DNA from: Nitrosospira sp. 56-18
GTDB lineage: Bacteria > Pseudomonadota > Gammaproteobacteria > Burkholderiales > Nitrosomonadaceae
Assembly: GCA_001899235.1 (NCBI GenBank)
Contig: MKVR01000014.1
Coordinates: 58,350-122,349, forward strand
Direction of reading: 5' to 3'
Length of the DNA stretch: 64,000 nucleotides
In this document: positions 2,850 to 62,817 of the stretch, in pieces
Numbering within the stretch: the stretch's first letter is position 1
Layout of the letters: every line of letters starts with the position of its first letter
Position numbers and translations under genes: made by a program
Notes under the pieces: model-generated
Databases searched by the model: none
The model's input: only the letters and a program-made list of their open reading frames with translations
Told to the model about the DNA's origin: nothing

Positions 2850-2895
2850 TGCTGCAATGATCCCAAATCCGGCAGTTGTCTCTACGCAGCCATAC

Positions 2896-4199: not shown

Positions 4200-5006
4200 C
4201 TAACGCAGCGCCAGCACGTCCTGCATATCGAACAGGCCGCTTTGCTTGTGCGCCAGAAAGCGGGCAGCCCGCATGGCCCCTGCGGCAAAGGTGGCGCGAC
4301 TCCCGGCCTTGTGCGAAATTTCCATGCGCTCGCCCGGCCCGGCAAACAACACCGTGTGGTCGCCAATGATATCGCCTCCGCGCACGGTGGAAAAACCGAT
4401 CGCTCCAGGGACTCGCTCACCGGTAATACCCTCCCGTCCGTATATCGCAACTTCGGAGAGATTTTTTCCACGTGCCTCCGCCGCCACTTCACCCATGCGC
4501 AAGGCGGTGCCGGAAGGAGCATCGACCTTGTGGCGATGATGCGCCTCCATGATCTCGATATCGTAATCCTCTTGGAGCACCCTGGCCGCCAATTCCACCA
4601 GCTTGAGCGTAACGTTTACTCCAACGCTCATATTGGGAGCCAGCACAATCGGAATATGTTGCGAGGCAGCGCGGATTTCTTCTTTTTGCTTCACGGAAAA
4701 ACCGGTGGTGCCGACAACCATTTTTACTCGTTCTGTCCGGCATACATCGAGATGCATGAGCGTGCCTTCAGGGCGGGTAAAATCGATCAGCACATCGCAG
4801 CCTGGAAGAGCAAGGGCGGCATCGTCCGTAATATGGACGCCGCAAGCCGTGCCGATCAACTCACCCGCATCCCTTCCCAGATAAGGGCTGCCGGTCTGAT
4901 CGAGGGCAGCGCATAATCGCATGCCCTCACCCTGCATTACGGCTTCCAGCAACACGCGTCCCATTCGGCCTGAACTTCCGGCGATTGCGATATTCAATGT
5001 CGTCAT
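4200..5006 (-). CDS. dapB: 4-hydroxy-tetrahydrodipicolinate reductase
   Basis: NAD(P)H-dependent reductase of the diaminopimelate/lysine pathway. The Rossmann motif [12 protein letters not shown] is at the N-terminus. The family signature [16 protein letters not shown] carries the catalytic His and Lys. At 268 aa it has the usual length. The frame runs on upstream to 5063, but the ATG at 5006 is preceded by GAGAG and places the Rossmann motif at the usual distance from the start. It sits between bamE and carA, all on the minus strand; this bamE-dapB-carA-carB order is common in betaproteobacteria. Confidence 0.95.
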
Positions 5007-5952: not shown

Positions 5953-6251
5953 CCAGGGAAGCGCTGAACAAATTCTCGCTGCGCGCGTTGCTGGTAAAAT
6001 CGGGATGATCATAAGGTGCAACGAGGTCCGCAGCTGGGCAACGATGCAGAAGAGCACCTAAACTCCCCCTGGGGCGCCGCTCGAGGAGTCTCTGCAAGGT
6101 GGAGGTTGGAGCGGCAAGGATGCCCGGACCGCCGGCAAGGTTGGCGCAGCCGCAATCCGCCATGCGGTCCAATTGCGCCGCCTTTCAGCATACCATCCCA
6201 CCCAGCGACGCTGCCGTCGCACCCGCGAAAACTTGTTCAGGGATTCCCTAA
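5953..6251. mobile_element. MITE-like element, copy A
   Basis: Terminal inverted repeats: GGAAGCGCTGAACAAATT at 5957 and, reading in from 6247 on the other strand, GGAATCCCTGAACAAG. It shares the internal block GTTGCTGGTAAAATCGGGAT with the copies at 37.7, 58.8 and 59.8 kb. The flanking tetranucleotides are CCAG on the left and CTAA on the right. No coding capacity is seen. The right end is about 40 bp upstream of the fur start, so it probably lies in or next to the fur promoter region. Confidence 0.8.
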
Positions 6252-6884: not shown

Positions 6885-6912
6885 TTAAGGAAGCGCTGAA
6901 CAAATCCCCGCT
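6885..6912. repeat. Solo left end of the MITE family, copy B
   Basis: TTAA followed by GGAAGCGCTGAACAAATC and CCCGCTGGCGC, matching the outermost part of the full copies. I could not find a matching right end before ilvB, so this is a remnant or a one-ended truncation. It lies between fur and the ilvB promoter. Confidence 0.65.
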
Positions 6913-7001
6913 GGCGCAGCGTCCCCTCCTACTTCGGAAGAATACCCCGGAAATCGCTGTTATCCCTGAGTCTCTTCGCGCCGCCAGCCGTTGGATAGGG
7001 G

Positions 7002-8786: not shown

Positions 8787-9278
8787 ATGCGCCACATCAT
8801 CTCACTGCTCATGGAAAACGAGGCGGGCGCCCTATCCCGCGTCGCCGGCCTGTTTTCCTCTCGAGCCTATAACATCGAATCGCTTACGGTGGCGCCAACG
8901 GAAGACCCGACCTTGTCACGCATGACCGTGGTTACCACGGGGTCAGACGACGTGGTCGAGCAGATCACGAAGCAATTGAACAAGCTGATCGAAGTAGTCA
9001 AAGTTGTGGATTTAAGCGAAGGCGATCATATCGAGCGCGAGATGATGCTGATAAAGCTGCGGGCGGTAGGCGAAGATCGCCAGGAAATAAAACGCATGGC
9101 CGATATCTTTCGCGGCCGCATCATTGACGTTACGGATAAGTCCTACACTATCGAGCTGACGGGTACGGGGTCAAAGCTCGATGCGTTTCTCGATGGGGTC
9201 AACCGCAGCGCCATCCTGGAGACGGTGCGTACCGGTGCGTCGGGTATCGGCCGGGGCGAGCGGATACTTAAGGTTTAA
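8787..9278 (+). CDS. ilvH: Acetolactate synthase small (regulatory) subunit
   Basis: Binds the end-product valine and raises the activity of the large subunit. The N-terminal ACT domain reads HIISLLMENEAGALSRVAGL and continues FSSRAYNIESLTV. The family C-terminal domain ends in RGERILKV. At 163 aa it has normal length. The stop codon TAA (9276-9278) lies in the TTAA that flanks the left end of a MITE copy, so the element inserted exactly at the end of the gene. Confidence 0.96.
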   Translation: MRHIISLLMENEAGALSRVAGLFSSRAYNIESLTVAPTEDPTLSRMTVVTTGSDDVVEQITKQLNKLIEVVKVVDLSEGDHIEREMMLIKLRAVGEDRQEIKRMADIFRGRIIDVTDKSYTIELTGTGSKLDAFLDGVNRSAILETVRTGASGIGRGERILKV

Positions 9279-9556
9279 GGGAGCGCTGAATAAATCTCTG
9301 GTGGCGCGGCGGTGGCTTTGCGGGATGGGATGCGCCGAAAAGCGACGACGCGAATGGTTGATCCCCTTCGTCAGGAGCCTGACAAGGCAGACCGCTCGCA
9401 AAGCCCCGCCCCATAAGGGTTGTGGTAAAATCGCATGCTCATGGCGTTGCACTCCCTGGCATCGTAGGCCCAGCTACGACCTGTGTCGCGCGCCTTATGA
9501 TCATCCGGATTTTACCGGCAACGCGCTCAGCGAGGATTTATTCAGCGTTTCCTCAA
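9275..9556. mobile_element. MITE-like element, copy C, between ilvH and ilvC
   Basis: The left flank TTAA overlaps the ilvH stop. The left end is GGGAGCGCTGAATAAATC, and the right end reads GATTTATTCAGCGTTTCC to 9552, flanked by TCAA (one base from TTAA). The interior is the reverse complement of copy F at 59.8 kb (shared CCCCGCCCCATAAGGGTTG and CGTCAGGAGCCTGACAAGG), so this copy is in the opposite orientation. It fills most of the 363-bp ilvH-ilvC spacer. Confidence 0.88.
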
Positions 9557-11609: not shown

Positions 11610-11969
11610 ATTGTCCATGCCCGCAAAGGCTTTTCGCGGTACTCGGCGTTCACCCTATATTCTCCTGTATGGTGCGTTCGCTACAACTGCCGGATTCAGG
11701 TTGAACACCGCCTTAACATTTTCTTGATGCCTGCTGTGCTAGATTTCTGAACGCTGGGCTTGCTACACTTCATGGATCGGCCGCGTCCGGAGATAAATGC
11801 CTGGGGCGAGCCGGTTTTGATACCAAGCACCGAATGCCCGACGTGGGGCAGGCGAATGAAACCACATGAAGCCCTGCTCTGCCGTGTGTAACCTATCAAA
11901 CGGACTGCTGGATACTGGCAGATCCTGCCGAACGGGAGCGATCATGAATACACAACGCGTGAGGCTGAC
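11610..11969. other. 360-bp spacer with no recognised feature
   Basis: I see no conserved gene, MITE end, strong terminator or clear promoter between pssA and pgi. Short frames on the minus strand here have no recognisable composition or ribosome-binding site. Confidence 0.4.
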
Positions 11970-37730: not shown

Positions 37731-38082
37731 TTAAGGAGGCGCTGAATAAATCCTCGCTGAGCACGTTGCTGGTAAAATCGGGATGATCATAAGGCGCGCG
37801 ACGAAGGTCGTAGCCGGGACTACGATGCCAGGGAGTGCTGCGCCATGGCTCCCCGGAGCTTCGCCCGAGGGGCCCCGCAGAGCGGGGATCTGGCAGCGGC
37901 GGAGATGCCAGAGCGCGCCAAAATATACATGGGGAGCCAGCAGCCCGCTACGGGGTCGCATCTTCCTTCGGAAGACACTGCTTTGCCCTGCGCGGTCGCA
38001 CCATTCGCGTCGTCGCCTTTCGCGCATCCCATCTCGCAAAGCCACCACCGCGCCAGCGGAGATTTGTTCAGCGCTTCCCCAG
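37731..38082. mobile_element. MITE-like element, copy D (longest)
   Basis: TTAA then GGAGGCGCTGAATAAATCC on the left; GATTTGTTCAGCGCTTCC on the right, flanked by CCAG. The left ~110 bp match copy F closely (GGTAAAATCGGGATGATCAT, GTCGTAGCCGGGACTACGAT). The centre is a different ~150-bp segment, then the right part (CGTCGTCGCCTTTCGCGCAT) matches again. It lies between proS and rppH, and an open frame runs from it into rppH. Confidence 0.88.
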
Positions 38083-40362: not shown

Positions 40363-40395
40363 CGCCAGCAAGGGATTTGTTCAGAGGTTCCTTAG
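40363..40395. repeat. Solo right end of the MITE family, copy H
   Basis: CGCCAGCAAGGGATTTGTTC then AGAGGTTCC matches the right terminus of the full copies, and is flanked by TTAG, a YTAR tetranucleotide. No left end is recognisable upstream. It lies about 70 bp ahead of hfq. Confidence 0.55.
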
Positions 40396-58848: not shown

Positions 58849-58991
58849 CCAGGGAAGCGCAACAAATCCTCGCTGAGCGCGTTGTCGGTAAAATCGGGAT
58901 GATCATAAGGCGCGCGACGAAGGTCGTGGCCGGGAGCGCCCGATTTTACCGTAACCCTTATGGGGCGGGGCTTTATTCAGCGCTTCCCTAG
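58849..58991. mobile_element. MITE-like element, copy E (143-bp deletion form)
   Basis: CCAG then GGAAGCGC...AACAAATCC on the left; TTTATTCAGCGCTTCC then CTAG on the right. The interior matches copy F up to GGGGCGGGGCTTT, then jumps to the right end, so about 115 bp are missing. GGTAAAATCGGG and CCCGATTTTACC form an internal hairpin. CTAG contains the stop codon (TAG on the minus strand) of the following gene. Confidence 0.88.
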
Positions 58992-59752
58992 AATTCGAAT
59001 ACCTGCCCGCGTACCGCTCTCTCCATCTGGAAACCTTCAGCCGCCTTCCGGATTTCCGCCATCGTGGCATCTTCATTGCCGGGTTCCATATGGGTGATTA
59101 AAAAGTGGACTGATTTGTTCAGATGCTTTAATCCGAGCGCCAGCAGCTTTGGGCGCATATGGCCGGCAGCTCTGGCTGCAGCGGTATTGCAGTCAAGAAA
59201 TGTCGCCTCGATCATCAGGTAGCGCAGATTGGTAATGGCGCTCAAGGCATGCCAGAATGGGGGGTGATACGTTGTATCCCCGCTGAAGACGAAACTCGCC
59301 TTCGGACCTTCGAACTGATAGGCCACGCCTGGCACGGCATGTCGAACCGGCAGCGGCGTAATTCTTCTTCCCGATATGTCCACGGTGCAGCCGACGGCGA
59401 TTGTTCGAAAGACCAGGTAAGGATTGGCGAGCGTAGGCAAGGAAGTGTAATCCGGCCAGAGCCTGAAATTGAACATGTCCCGTTTCAGAATAGCGCAGGT
59501 TTCGGGCAAGGCATAAACAGTAAGAGGCTTGTCGCGGCGCGGTCCCACCATATCCGCAAGCATGGGCAGAAGCGCGGTATGGTCGAGATGGGAATGAGTG
59601 AGAAACACGGCGTCGATGCGCAGCATCTGTTCCATCGTCAGGTCGCCCACACCGGTGCCGGCATCCACAAGTATGTCATGATCGAGCATCAGGCAGGTGG
59701 TCCTTAGATCAGCCGCAATCCCGCCGGTACATCCCAGTATGGTTAATCGCAT
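58988..59752 (-). CDS. MBL-fold metallo-hydrolase, cyclic-nucleotide phosphodiesterase-like
   Basis: The metallo-beta-lactamase fold shows the metal motif LTHSHLDHTALLP and further ligands in FSGDTTYH and LITHMEPGN. N-terminus MRLTILGCTGGIAADLRTTC. At 254 aa with this arrangement it resembles class II 3',5'-cyclic-nucleotide phosphodiesterase-like proteins; the substrate is not certain. Convergent with corA, with a MITE between; its stop lies in the MITE flank. Confidence 0.82.
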   Translation of the reverse strand: MRLTILGCTGGIAADLRTTCLMLDHDILVDAGTGVGDLTMEQMLRIDAVFLTHSHLDHTALLPMLADMVGPRRDKPLTVYALPETCAILKRDMFNFRLWPDYTSLPTLANPYLVFRTIAVGCTVDISGRRITPLPVRHAVPGVAYQFEGPKASFVFSGDTTYHPPFWHALSAITNLRYLMIEATFLDCNTAAARAAGHMRPKLLALGLKHLNKSVHFLITHMEPGNEDATMAEIRKAAEGFQMERAVRGQVFEF

Positions 59753-59824: not shown

Positions 59825-60105
59825 TTAAGGAAGCGCTGAATAAATCCTCGCTGAGCGCGTTGCTGGTAAAATCGGGATGATCATAAGATGCGCGACGCAG
59901 GTCGTAGCCGGGACTACGATGCCAAGGAGCGCAACGCAGTGAGCGCCCGATTTTACCGCAACCCTTATGGGGCGGGGCTTTGCGAGCGTTCTGCCTTGTC
60001 AGGCTCCTAGCGAAGGGGGTCAACCATTCGCGTCGTCGCCTTTCGCGCATCCCATCCCGCAAACCCACCGCCGCGCCAGCGGAGATTTATTCAGCGCTTC
60101 CTTAA
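59825..60105. mobile_element. MITE-like element, copy F (best-preserved)
   Basis: Perfect flanking TTAA on both sides and terminal inverted repeats GGAAGCGCTGAATAAATC, matching exactly over 18 bp and again at CGCTG. Total 281 bp including both tetranucleotides. Internal inverted repeat GGTAAAATCGGG (59865-59876) / CCCGATTTTACC (59946-59957), and a small CGTAG/CTACG hairpin. No ORF of note. The right TTAA contains the stop of the glycosyltransferase gene. Confidence 0.92.
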
Positions 60106-61115
60106 CTCCATTTCCAAGACACTATCTTCACGCCCCTTGCGCGCGCGCAGAATGCAAACAAGGCGGTGAGCAAGCGCGGCGCATCCGGCAAGATCCAGAT
60201 TTCCCTGAAGCATCTATGGGAATACCGGTTGTATATGAACAATCTTGCGAGGTCAACAAGAGGCAAGGAGCCAGCGCGCATCTGCAGACAGAGAAGCGGC
60301 CATGAGCGCCGCGGTGCAAGCCAATCCATATATCCCCCGTGCTGGAACACATTATCGACAGCATGCAATAACTCGGGGGGAAGCTGCGTAAGCGAACAGG
60401 TACCCGAGATCAATAGTATGTGGCGACCAGCATCTGGATAACGGGAAAGATACAGGTTCCGGTTATGGCGTGCCAGCTCCTTGAATGAGCGACCGCGGCC
60501 AAATGAACCTCCTCCCTTATGTTCTATGCGGGCCTCAGGATATACGCCGAGCCGCCAGCCTTGCAAGGCGAGCCTGCGGCCGAGATCCACATCCTCGTAA
60601 TAGCCCCGTCCGAACAGAGAGTCGAAACCCCCGATTTCGCTGAAGACATTTCTCCTGATAAGGAACGCATAACCGCGAAGCCGGTGGGTTTGCACGTAGC
60701 CTCCCGGCAGGCGCCGATATTTTTCCCATTCGTATTTGGTATATTCGTTACCCGCGGGAATAATGACAGCAAGTTGCGGATCGGCCGAGAATACGGCACA
60801 CAGCGCCGGCAGGAAATCCTCGCTGGCCACGATATCCGAATTGAGGATCAGGACATAGGCCGCATCCGAGCGCGCTACAGCGTCATTTACCGATTTTCCG
60901 AATCCCTGATTTTTCGGCGCGTGAAAGATACGCACGCTCTCATACGGTAGCTGGTCGAGCATTTCGCGGGTTTCGGCCTCGGACGCATCATCCTGGATAT
61001 GGATATATCTTATGGAGCGGCCGAGGTGCGCAACAACGGAATCAACGCACCGGCGGGTTAACGCAGGGGCATTGAATACGGGAATGACTGCATCAATAAT
61101 GGGTATGGCCGACAT
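60102..61115 (-). CDS. Family 2 glycosyltransferase
   Basis: 337 aa with a GT-A fold: N-terminal IDAVIPVFNAPALTRRCVDS, nucleotide-binding IQDDASEAETRE, the metal site LNSDIVAS, and the acceptor-side GRGYYEDVDLGRRLALQGWR with the probable catalytic acid. It resembles rhamnosyltransferase-like enzymes of O-antigen or exopolysaccharide synthesis; the sugar is unknown. It is 42 bp downstream of the next gene, in the same direction. Its TAA stop falls in the TTAA flank of a MITE. Confidence 0.88.
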   Translation of the reverse strand: MSAIPIIDAVIPVFNAPALTRRCVDSVVAHLGRSIRYIHIQDDASEAETREMLDQLPYESVRIFHAPKNQGFGKSVNDAVARSDAAYVLILNSDIVASEDFLPALCAVFSADPQLAVIIPAGNEYTKYEWEKYRRLPGGYVQTHRLRGYAFLIRRNVFSEIGGFDSLFGRGYYEDVDLGRRLALQGWRLGVYPEARIEHKGGGSFGRGRSFKELARHNRNLYLSRYPDAGRHILLISGTCSLTQLPPELLHAVDNVFQHGGYMDWLAPRRSWPLLCLQMRAGSLPLVDLARLFIYNRYSHRCFREIWILPDAPRLLTALFAFCARARGVKIVSWKWS

Positions 61116-62477: not shown

Positions 62478-62817
62478 ACCTGGGCTCTTGGCCTTTGATC
62501 ATTGCCTGAAGTCAGCATATCCATCATTCTGTCAATATCAGGCTGCCATTTATGACAGAAAAAGCGTGTGATTGTACATCGTAGCACCCCGGCTTACTAG
62601 GGAAGCGCTGAACAAATCCTCGTTGAGCGCGTTGCTGAAAAACCGGGGATGATTCATCGGAATGGTCATAAGGCACGCCTCGCCTGCTCCCAGCACAGCG
62701 GTATAGTGGTAATATGTCGGCCTGCGGCCTGCAACGGGCGCCGCGTAATGCAGAGCGCAGCCAATGATTGCTGCCGCATGAATTCGGTAACGACGATACG
62801 CTGGATATGATTCCCAA
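62478..62817. other. 340-bp spacer upstream of kdsB with a MITE left end (copy G)
   Basis: CTAG at 62597-62600 followed by GGAAGCGCTGAACAAATCC and TCGTTGAGCGCGTTGCTG matches the left end of the family; the similarity fades by about 62680 and no right end is found. The rest shows no gene. Confidence 0.6.

What the first reader, a model, noticed from the sequence alone, without database searches (positions are those of the whole stretch)
59825..60105. A MITE-like family with YTAR target sites seeds the spacers of this region
Five two-ended copies (5.95, 9.28, 37.7, 58.85 and 59.8 kb) and at least three single ends (6.89, 40.37 and 62.6 kb) share the terminus GGAAGCGCTGAAYAAATC and internal blocks. 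Flanks are TTAA/TTAA, TTAA/TCAA, CCAG/CTAG, TTAA/CCAG, CCAG/CTAA, CTAG and TTAG: YTAR or one or two transitions away. IS5-group transposases are known to duplicate YTAR, so an IS5-like parent is a reasonable inference. None of the copies encodes a transposase.
Basis: partly seen in the sequence, partly recalled or inferred. Interest (0 to 1): 0.75.

Follow-up and report, generated by a model that had tools for sequence, protein, structure and literature searches.

The report
Mix-and-match mobile repeats in Nitrosospira
This Nitrosospira-group genome holds 191 matches to the end of a short DNA repeat that comes in several block arrangements and sits mostly at YTAR sites; it was likely copied around by an IS5-family enzyme that our searches did not find in this genome, so a familiar kind of jumping DNA turns out to be put together like a construction kit.

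Summary
The finding is real and much larger than the window. The terminus GGAAGCGCTGAAYAAATC (up to 2 mismatches) occurs 191 times in the genome, with none for the reversed control. Of 50 paired copies read, 31 have YTAR on both sides; 24 of these have identical 4-mers, against 8.8 expected from random re-pairing. So this is a YTAR-duplicating MITE family. The IS5 inference holds. Decayed transposase genes in two sister genomes lie next to the same 18-bp end (the G019 one is NCBIfam IS5 family, NF033581), and a near-complete cousin has that end with CTAA/CTAA. No such transposase was found in the host. Two things were not in the finding. First, copies are modular: L-M1-R, L-M2-R, L-M2-M1-R, L-M1-M2-R, as in BOX elements. 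The ~272-bp L-M1-R form recurs in four families of the order; its outer stem and L-M1 arm covary. Second, the ~150-bp cassette M2 also sits in a second MITE family with other ends and 5-bp duplications. Function is undetermined; template switching could explain the covariation. Verdict: a modular variant of a known kind.

The parts
59825..59828 (.). TTAA, left target-site duplication of the reference copy
   Evidence: sequence; genome-wide YTAR flanks
59829..59940 (+). module L (terminal inverted repeat + subterminal block) of the L-M1-R copy
   Evidence: C14_118178: L 1-109, M1 113-195, R 196-273
59941..60023 (+). module M1
60024..60101 (+). module R (ends in the inverted terminus)
60102..60105 (.). 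TTAA, right target-site duplication; its TTA is the stop codon (TAA) of ORF 60102-61115 (-)
9275..9556 (-). L-M1-R copy (9279-9552) with flanks TTAA/TCAA; left TTAA holds the stop of ORF 8787-9278 (+)
37731..38082 (+). L-M2-R copy (37735-38078) with flanks TTAA/CCAG
58849..58991 (+). shortened copy (58853-58987, L + part of M1) with flanks CCAG/CTAG; the CTAG holds the stop of the ORF 58988-59752 (-)
5953..6251 (+). old, diverged copy (5957-6247), L 87% and R 72%, flanks CCAG/CTAA
   Evidence: right end read by eye
6885..6921 (+). solo end with TTAA flank (about 33 bp match)
62597..62653 (+). solo end with CTAG flank, L 1-53 at 88%
40374..40395 (-). solo end of a diverged subfamily (GGAACCTCTGAACAAATC) with TTAG flank; no L/M/R match

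Best explanation
The feature is one copy of a modular MITE family that lies between YTAR duplications and was likely mobilised in trans by an IS5-family (NF033581-type) transposase, a gene our searches did not find in this genome today. Shown: paired 18-bp inverted ends, 4-bp YTAR duplications, 191 ends in the genome, and internal blocks L, M1, M2 and R in a few fixed orders. Also shown: in related genomes the identical terminus lies beside an IS5-family transposase gene, and many cousins of that IS lie between identical YTAR 4-mers. Inferred: the transposase of such an IS bound the shared ends of these transposase-less elements and pasted them at YTAR sites; the IS itself has since been lost here or is missing from the draft. 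The middle blocks are likely passengers that were lost, gained and reordered, probably by recombination or template switching. M2 also sits in a second MITE family with other ends.
For: Ends and copy number. Target duplication: (of the 31 pairs with YTAR on both sides 24 identical vs mean 8.8, maximum 18, in 20,000 re-pairings). Parent: (L185/L208, L200/L237), L209 with CTAA/CTAA, family of the G019 protein, 33 related two-ended ISs. MITE and IS share only the terminal 18-23 bp. Not found in host: PF05598 0 hits, protein search 0 hits at E<=1e-20 and E<=1e-60. Of the host's seven PF01609 places none has these ends within 4 mismatches; four were classified and all best match IS5_3, three above its cut-off. 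Modules. Spread: (38 of 199 genomes, 9 of 64 genera at E<=1e-8). No pair of ends beside the same gene in eight syntenic relatives.
Against: No intact IS with exactly this pair of ends was found: the closest hit without stops over most of the query is 55% identical (399 order genomes drawn), and the G019 and G020 remnants lack a recognisable far end. 19 of 50 paired copies lack YTAR on at least one side (16 one side, 3 both), taken as decay but not proven. Nucleotide-level empty sites could not be shown: relatives are too diverged. The element body is not a deletion derivative of the IS. Of the 33 related ISs 9 lack YTAR on at least one side. The PF05598 control rang in only 3 of 14 named genomes, so that search may miss members.
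Confidence: 0.88

Rival explanations
1. The transposase is present in the living strain but missing from the 54-contig draft, because the repeated IS broke the assembly.
For: Ten contig ends lie inside an element (C9 twice, C10, C16, C18, C24, C32, C35, C36, C40).
Against: All ten run in L, M1, M2 or R up to the contig edge or to within 8-23 bases of it, not into IS sequence (for C40). Three searches found no IS5_4 gene, at 99.89% estimated completeness.
Confidence: 0.2
2. The elements are cross-mobilised by IS5-family transposases of another group that are present in this genome (IS5_3 type).
For: Seven PF01609 places exist in the genome; the four classified best match transpos_IS5_3, three above its cut-off.
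Against: None of the seven loci has the terminus within 4 mismatches; a degenerate terminus gave only 4-mismatch sites. The four frames classified are 128-271 aa. That this group makes other duplications is recalled, not tested.
Confidence: 0.07
3. The folded L-M1-R body (outer stem and L-M1 arm) is kept by selection, as a transcribed RNA or as extruded DNA, and the family is more than a passive parasite.
For: Across 15 elements from 14 genomes: 29 of 97 pairs with changes on both sides (shuffle mean 13.6, 0 of 500; slid controls 5-9); L-M1 arm 13 of 37 (mean 6.4, 0 of 500). The element length is nearly constant (269-275 bp) in four families of the order. Fold z = -7.6 and -8.6 on the two strands.
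Against: The M1-R arm shows no covariation (3 of 29; 193 of 500 shuffles). L-M2-R copies lack M1 yet several have clean duplications. No Rfam match. No gene-orientation bias. The shuffles do not remove relatedness.
Confidence: 0.25
4. The covariation is neutral: replication template switching between hairpin arms copies changes from one arm to the other, even into the flanks.
For: Four of 50 flank pairs are non-identical but perfectly complementary (TTAG/CTAA x3, TTGA/TCAA x1), against 0.4-0.9 expected under independent mutation of a duplication (P 0.0008-0.014). The flanks have no obvious reason to be selected for pairing. The mechanism has been described (PMC8794818 and PMC7202029, search listing and start of abstracts only).
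Against: Small numbers. In the simulation the mutation rates and starting 4-mers were set by me.
Confidence: 0.45

Closest known systems
BOX elements of Streptococcus pneumoniae and S. suis
   Same: A-(B)n-C design: end modules with optional, repeatable middle modules; folded; sometimes supply a gene's stop codon; in S. suis two types with different end modules (boxA/C and boxE/F) surround the same boxB, a precedent for a shared middle module (PMC3049150, passages read)
   Different: YTAR duplication and IS5_4-type ends here; two different middle modules in either order; other phylum (recalled). BOX sequences were not compared
IS5 family, NCBIfam transpos_IS5_4 (NF033581)
   Same: terminus, YTAR duplications, transposase beside the identical terminus in sister genomes
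   Different: no transposase gene, and no IS sequence beyond the terminal 18-23 bp
MITEs of prokaryotes in general (review PMC10969869, passages read)
   Same: short, direct repeats, stable stem-loop fold, intergenic tendency, thought to derive from IS elements
   Different: the review calls MITEs typically AT-rich; these copies average 62% G+C in a window of 55%, and have a block architecture

Membership tests
MITE | short element with terminal inverted repeats and no transposase | tested here: met
   47 of the 50 paired copies are 141-423 bp, the others 45, 70 and 106 bp; IS5_4-type transposase queries against the 67 fetched segments gave only chance hits, E 0.3 or worse
MITE | direct target-site duplication | tested here: met
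   24 of 50 pairs identical 4-mers, among them asymmetric direct repeats CTAA/CTAA x3 and TTAG/TTAG x1
MITE | ends match those of an autonomous element | tested here: met
   L185, L200 and L209 carry the 18-bp terminus next to an IS5-type transposase gene; all three genes are damaged and only L209 has a second, diverged end
MITE | transposition observed | not testable with these tools
   needs an assay or sister strains
IS5 family (as non-autonomous relative) | YTAR target | tested here: met
   31 of 50 pairs both sides, 30 of 40 single ends; that IS5-group elements use YTAR is recalled, and 24 of 33 related ISs show it on both sides here
IS5 family | DDE transposase in the element | tested here: not met
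   none of the IS5_4 type in the segments read or found in the genome
BOX elements | end modules with variable middle modules | tested here: met
   12 full L-M1-R, 17 L-M2-R (some with deletions), 6 L-M2-M1-R, 4 L-M1-M2-R among 50 pairs; L-M2-M1-M2-R in G001 and G012
BOX elements | boxA/boxB/boxC sequence identity | not tested
   BOX sequences were not compared; membership is not claimed, only likeness of design

The most novel reading that the evidence does not exclude
M2 is a hitchhiking cassette that moves between unrelated MITE chassis. One chassis ends in IS5-type YTAR termini, the other in CCTAAATCCGG termini with 5-bp duplications, so M2 is carried by two different transposases and often settles in a hairpin loop of its carrier. 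The chassis in turn is a folded element kept nearly constant in size in several families of the order. Bacterial MITEs would then be modular vehicles with exchangeable cargo rather than mere deletion remnants of an IS.
Probability: 0.3. Interest if true: 0.68.

Novelty: new variant of a known kind. Interest (0 to 1): 0.5.

Why it matters
It shows a bacterial MITE family whose body comes in interchangeable blocks and is shared across genera, while the ends differ between lineages and the likely enzyme was not found in the most heavily loaded genome seen. That makes two old questions testable: where MITE bodies come from when they are not IS remnants, and whether paired changes in their hairpins reflect selection or replication errors. 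It also warns assemblers and annotators of Nitrosospira genomes about a repeat with 191 ends in 3.3 Mb.

Tried and rejected
Parent among the genome's own PF01609 genes: rejected; seven places, none with the ends within 4 mismatches; four were classified, all best match IS5_3, three above and one below its cut-off; the other three were not classified. MITE as internal-deletion derivative of the IS: rejected; only 18-23 terminal bp shared. Preference for stop codons: 20 of 103 YTAR-flanked ends fall exactly on the stop of an ORF of >=150 codons, but outside ORFs 18 of 73 against 33 of 198 background YTAR sites is not significant (Fisher P = 0.16); the background count for non-coding sites was wrong (it dropped stop sites) and was replaced. 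Bias to convergent genes (terminator role): none; 30 tandem, 10 divergent, 6 convergent against 36, 7, 6 for window gene pairs, by crude ORF calling, 2 of the 48 copies of at least 100 bp left out at contig edges. Rfam: no match at gathering level for the window nor up to E = 1 for three element loci and three loci of the second family. Covariation of M2: weak, 4 of 35 pairs (z = -1.7); a first M2 alignment (A3) had one row cut at the wrong place and was redone without it. Solved structures of the transposase: none by sequence at E<=0.001. Papers: none holds both Nitrosospira and miniature inverted-repeat; in the other searches the rows listed (1 of 1, 15 of 19, 10 of 350, 10 of 74, 1 of 1, 8 of 1,253) show by title no paper on such repeats in Nitrosospira or Nitrosomonas. 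ISfinder was not available.

Full report
Where it is. The window is contig C14, 58350-122349, of a 3.29-Mb draft of 54 contigs. Its nearest named relatives at one flanking gene are Nitrosospira and Nitrosovibrio (70-77% amino-acid identity).

The observation. The terminus GGAAGCGCTGAAYAAATC with at most 2 mismatches occurs 98 + 93 = 191 times in the genome, 0 times for the reversed control. The 60 other genomes have 0-42 matches each. The highest, G016, has mostly its own variant (GGAAGCCCTGAACAAGTC). This is an expansion in one lineage.

Target sites. In the stretches I fetched, 140 ends with at most 3 mismatches gave 50 pairs and 40 single ends; 131 of the 191 ends with at most 2 mismatches are among them. 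Of the 50 pairs, 31 have YTAR on both sides, 16 on one side and 3 on none. All 24 pairs with identical 4-mers are among the 31; random re-pairing of those flanks would give 8.8 identical, never more than 18 in 20,000 trials. Of the 40 single ends, 30 have YTAR. Many single ends are chopped after 25-50 bp and run into unrelated sequence.

The parent. A search of 23 genus genomes for PF05598 gave 32 places, none in the host; 30 of the 32 were fetched. Two have the exact terminus close by: L185 (G019), with ...TTAA|GGAAGCGCTGAACAAATCACC, and L200 (G020). A third, L203 (G014), is a whole IS with variant ends and CTAG/CTAG. 234 residues of the 252-aa open frame in G019 match the IS5-family model NF033581 with 263 bits (cut-off 140), and PF05598 and PF01609. 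The G020 copy was not put to that model; its best piece is 76% identical to the G019 protein. Both copies are decayed: their frames are broken and no far end was found within 6 mismatches. A 70%-identical relative in G084 (L209, 1186 bp, one stop) has the identical 18-bp terminus on one side, a diverged one on the other, and CTAA/CTAA. Of 59 transposase loci (at least five were repeat fetches), 33 distinct elements had both ends by my scan, which did not use the flanks: 22 have identical 4-mers (20 of them YTAR) and 24 have YTAR on both sides. In the host this type was not found: no PF05598 (that control rang in 3 of 14 genomes), no protein match. Its seven PF01609 places lack these ends; three of four classified are IS5_3 above cut-off, the fourth below. 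MITE and IS share only the terminal 18-23 bp, so the MITE is not a simple deletion of this IS.

The new part: modules. The longer copies fall into size classes of about 273, 346 and 422 bp. The blocks are L (113 bp), M1 (83), M2 (155) and R (78), in one orientation in the G000 copies: 12 full L-M1-R, 17 L-M2-R (some with deletions), 6 L-M2-M1-R and 4 L-M1-M2-R; the rest of the 50 are shorter or deleted forms. L-M2-M1-M2-R occurs in G001 and G012. An inverted piece of L occurs in G014 (L259). Members of the 273-bp class are 91-98% identical to their majority sequence, apart from one odd 289-bp member at 78%. Of 199 genomes, 38 in 9 of 64 genera match at E <= 1e-8 (only the best three candidates per genome were scored, so copy numbers there are lower bounds). 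L-M1-R of 269-275 bp, with 71-93% identity of the blocks, was read in genomes of four families and five genera.

Fold. The reference copy folds into an outer stem and two arms, z = -7.6 and -8.6 on the other strand. I took this fold from the window copy and counted pairs on an alignment of that copy and 14 elements from 13 other genomes (G014 was left out because its L block is rearranged; G019 and partial copies were not aligned). 29 of 97 pairs have changes on both sides (shuffles 13.6, slid partners 5-9). The L-M1 arm alone has 13 of 37 (6.4; 0 of 500). The M1-R arm has 3 of 29 and is not supported. Relatedness of the sequences is not removed by these shuffles. The alternative of arm-to-arm copying is serious: 4 of 50 flank pairs are complementary but not identical, against 0.4-0.9 expected.

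A shared cassette. M2 hits without L or R led to a second MITE family with ends CCTAAATCCGGYAGTTG, about 236 bp without and 376-386 bp with M2 at the same internal point. It has 140 ends in the host and 200 in G011, and 0-2 in several others. 11 of the 20 two-ended rows have identical 5-mers at their flanks (some rows may be repeat fetches of one copy). 8 of those 20 carry M2 at 77-83% identity. M2 can sit in a hairpin loop in both families: between GGAATGG and CATTCC in family 2, and between GCGAAGG and CCATTCGC in L-M1-M2-R. In L-M2-M1-R it does not; there it lies within the L-M1 arm. In L041 and L282 of family 2 its right border is followed by CCATTCCGCGTCGTCGC or a near match, close to CCATTCGCGTCGTCGC in family 1, which suggests exchange by recombination there. 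This last step is inference. M2 itself shows little covariation. BOX elements of S. suis are a precedent for different end modules around one middle module (PMC3049150, passage).

Context. Three window copies abut a stop codon inside their flank (9278, 58988, 60102). Genome-wide this is common (20 of 103 YTAR-flanked ends at ORFs of >=150 codons) but not significantly above background. In BOX the same is described (PMC3049150, passage). In eight named relatives with the upstream gene in the same order (L038-L045, of nine loci), no pair of these ends lies beside the gene that has a copy on each side here. L044 has one end-like site with 2 mismatches in the gap, and L039 a small decayed element of its own at the stop.

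Judgement. The mechanism (a YTAR-duplicating IS5-family transposase acting in trans) is well supported but not observed. What lifts the case above an ordinary new MITE family is the block design, the near-constant chassis in several families, and a cassette common to two MITE families with different ends. Facts on the IS5 group's YTAR preference and on IS groups are recalled.

Noticed in passing
window 2862-2878 (+) and 11684-11700 (-); L041 4783-5158, L254 1342-1727: Second MITE family, ends CCTAAATCCGGYAGTTG, about 236 or 380 bp, 5-bp duplications in 11 of 20 rows; 140 ends in this genome and 200 in G011.
   Followed up: partly
L041 4762-5171 versus L042: A second-family copy lies between two genes in Nitrosovibrio Nv6 where Nv4 has a gap of about 28 bp: a filled and an empty site.
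   Followed up: partly
L039 just after position 4762: Nitrosospira NpAV has its own small decayed inverted-end element at the stop codon of the same gene that carries the 58.85-kb copy here (read by eye).
   Followed up: no
G000 C20:57700, C20:102568, C24:29126, C18:16343: Flank pairs that are complementary but not identical (TTAG/CTAA, TTGA/TCAA), as if one hairpin arm had templated the other beyond the element.
   Followed up: partly
G016 and G050 (many contigs): Many ends of the variant GGAAGCCCTGAACAAGTC (42 and 16 matches to the pattern within 2 mismatches, other variants included); several G050 contigs break within about 90 bases of it.
   Followed up: no
L247 1355-1663; L244 1460-1636: Tandem or partly repeated M2 units, like repeated boxB modules.
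   Followed up: no
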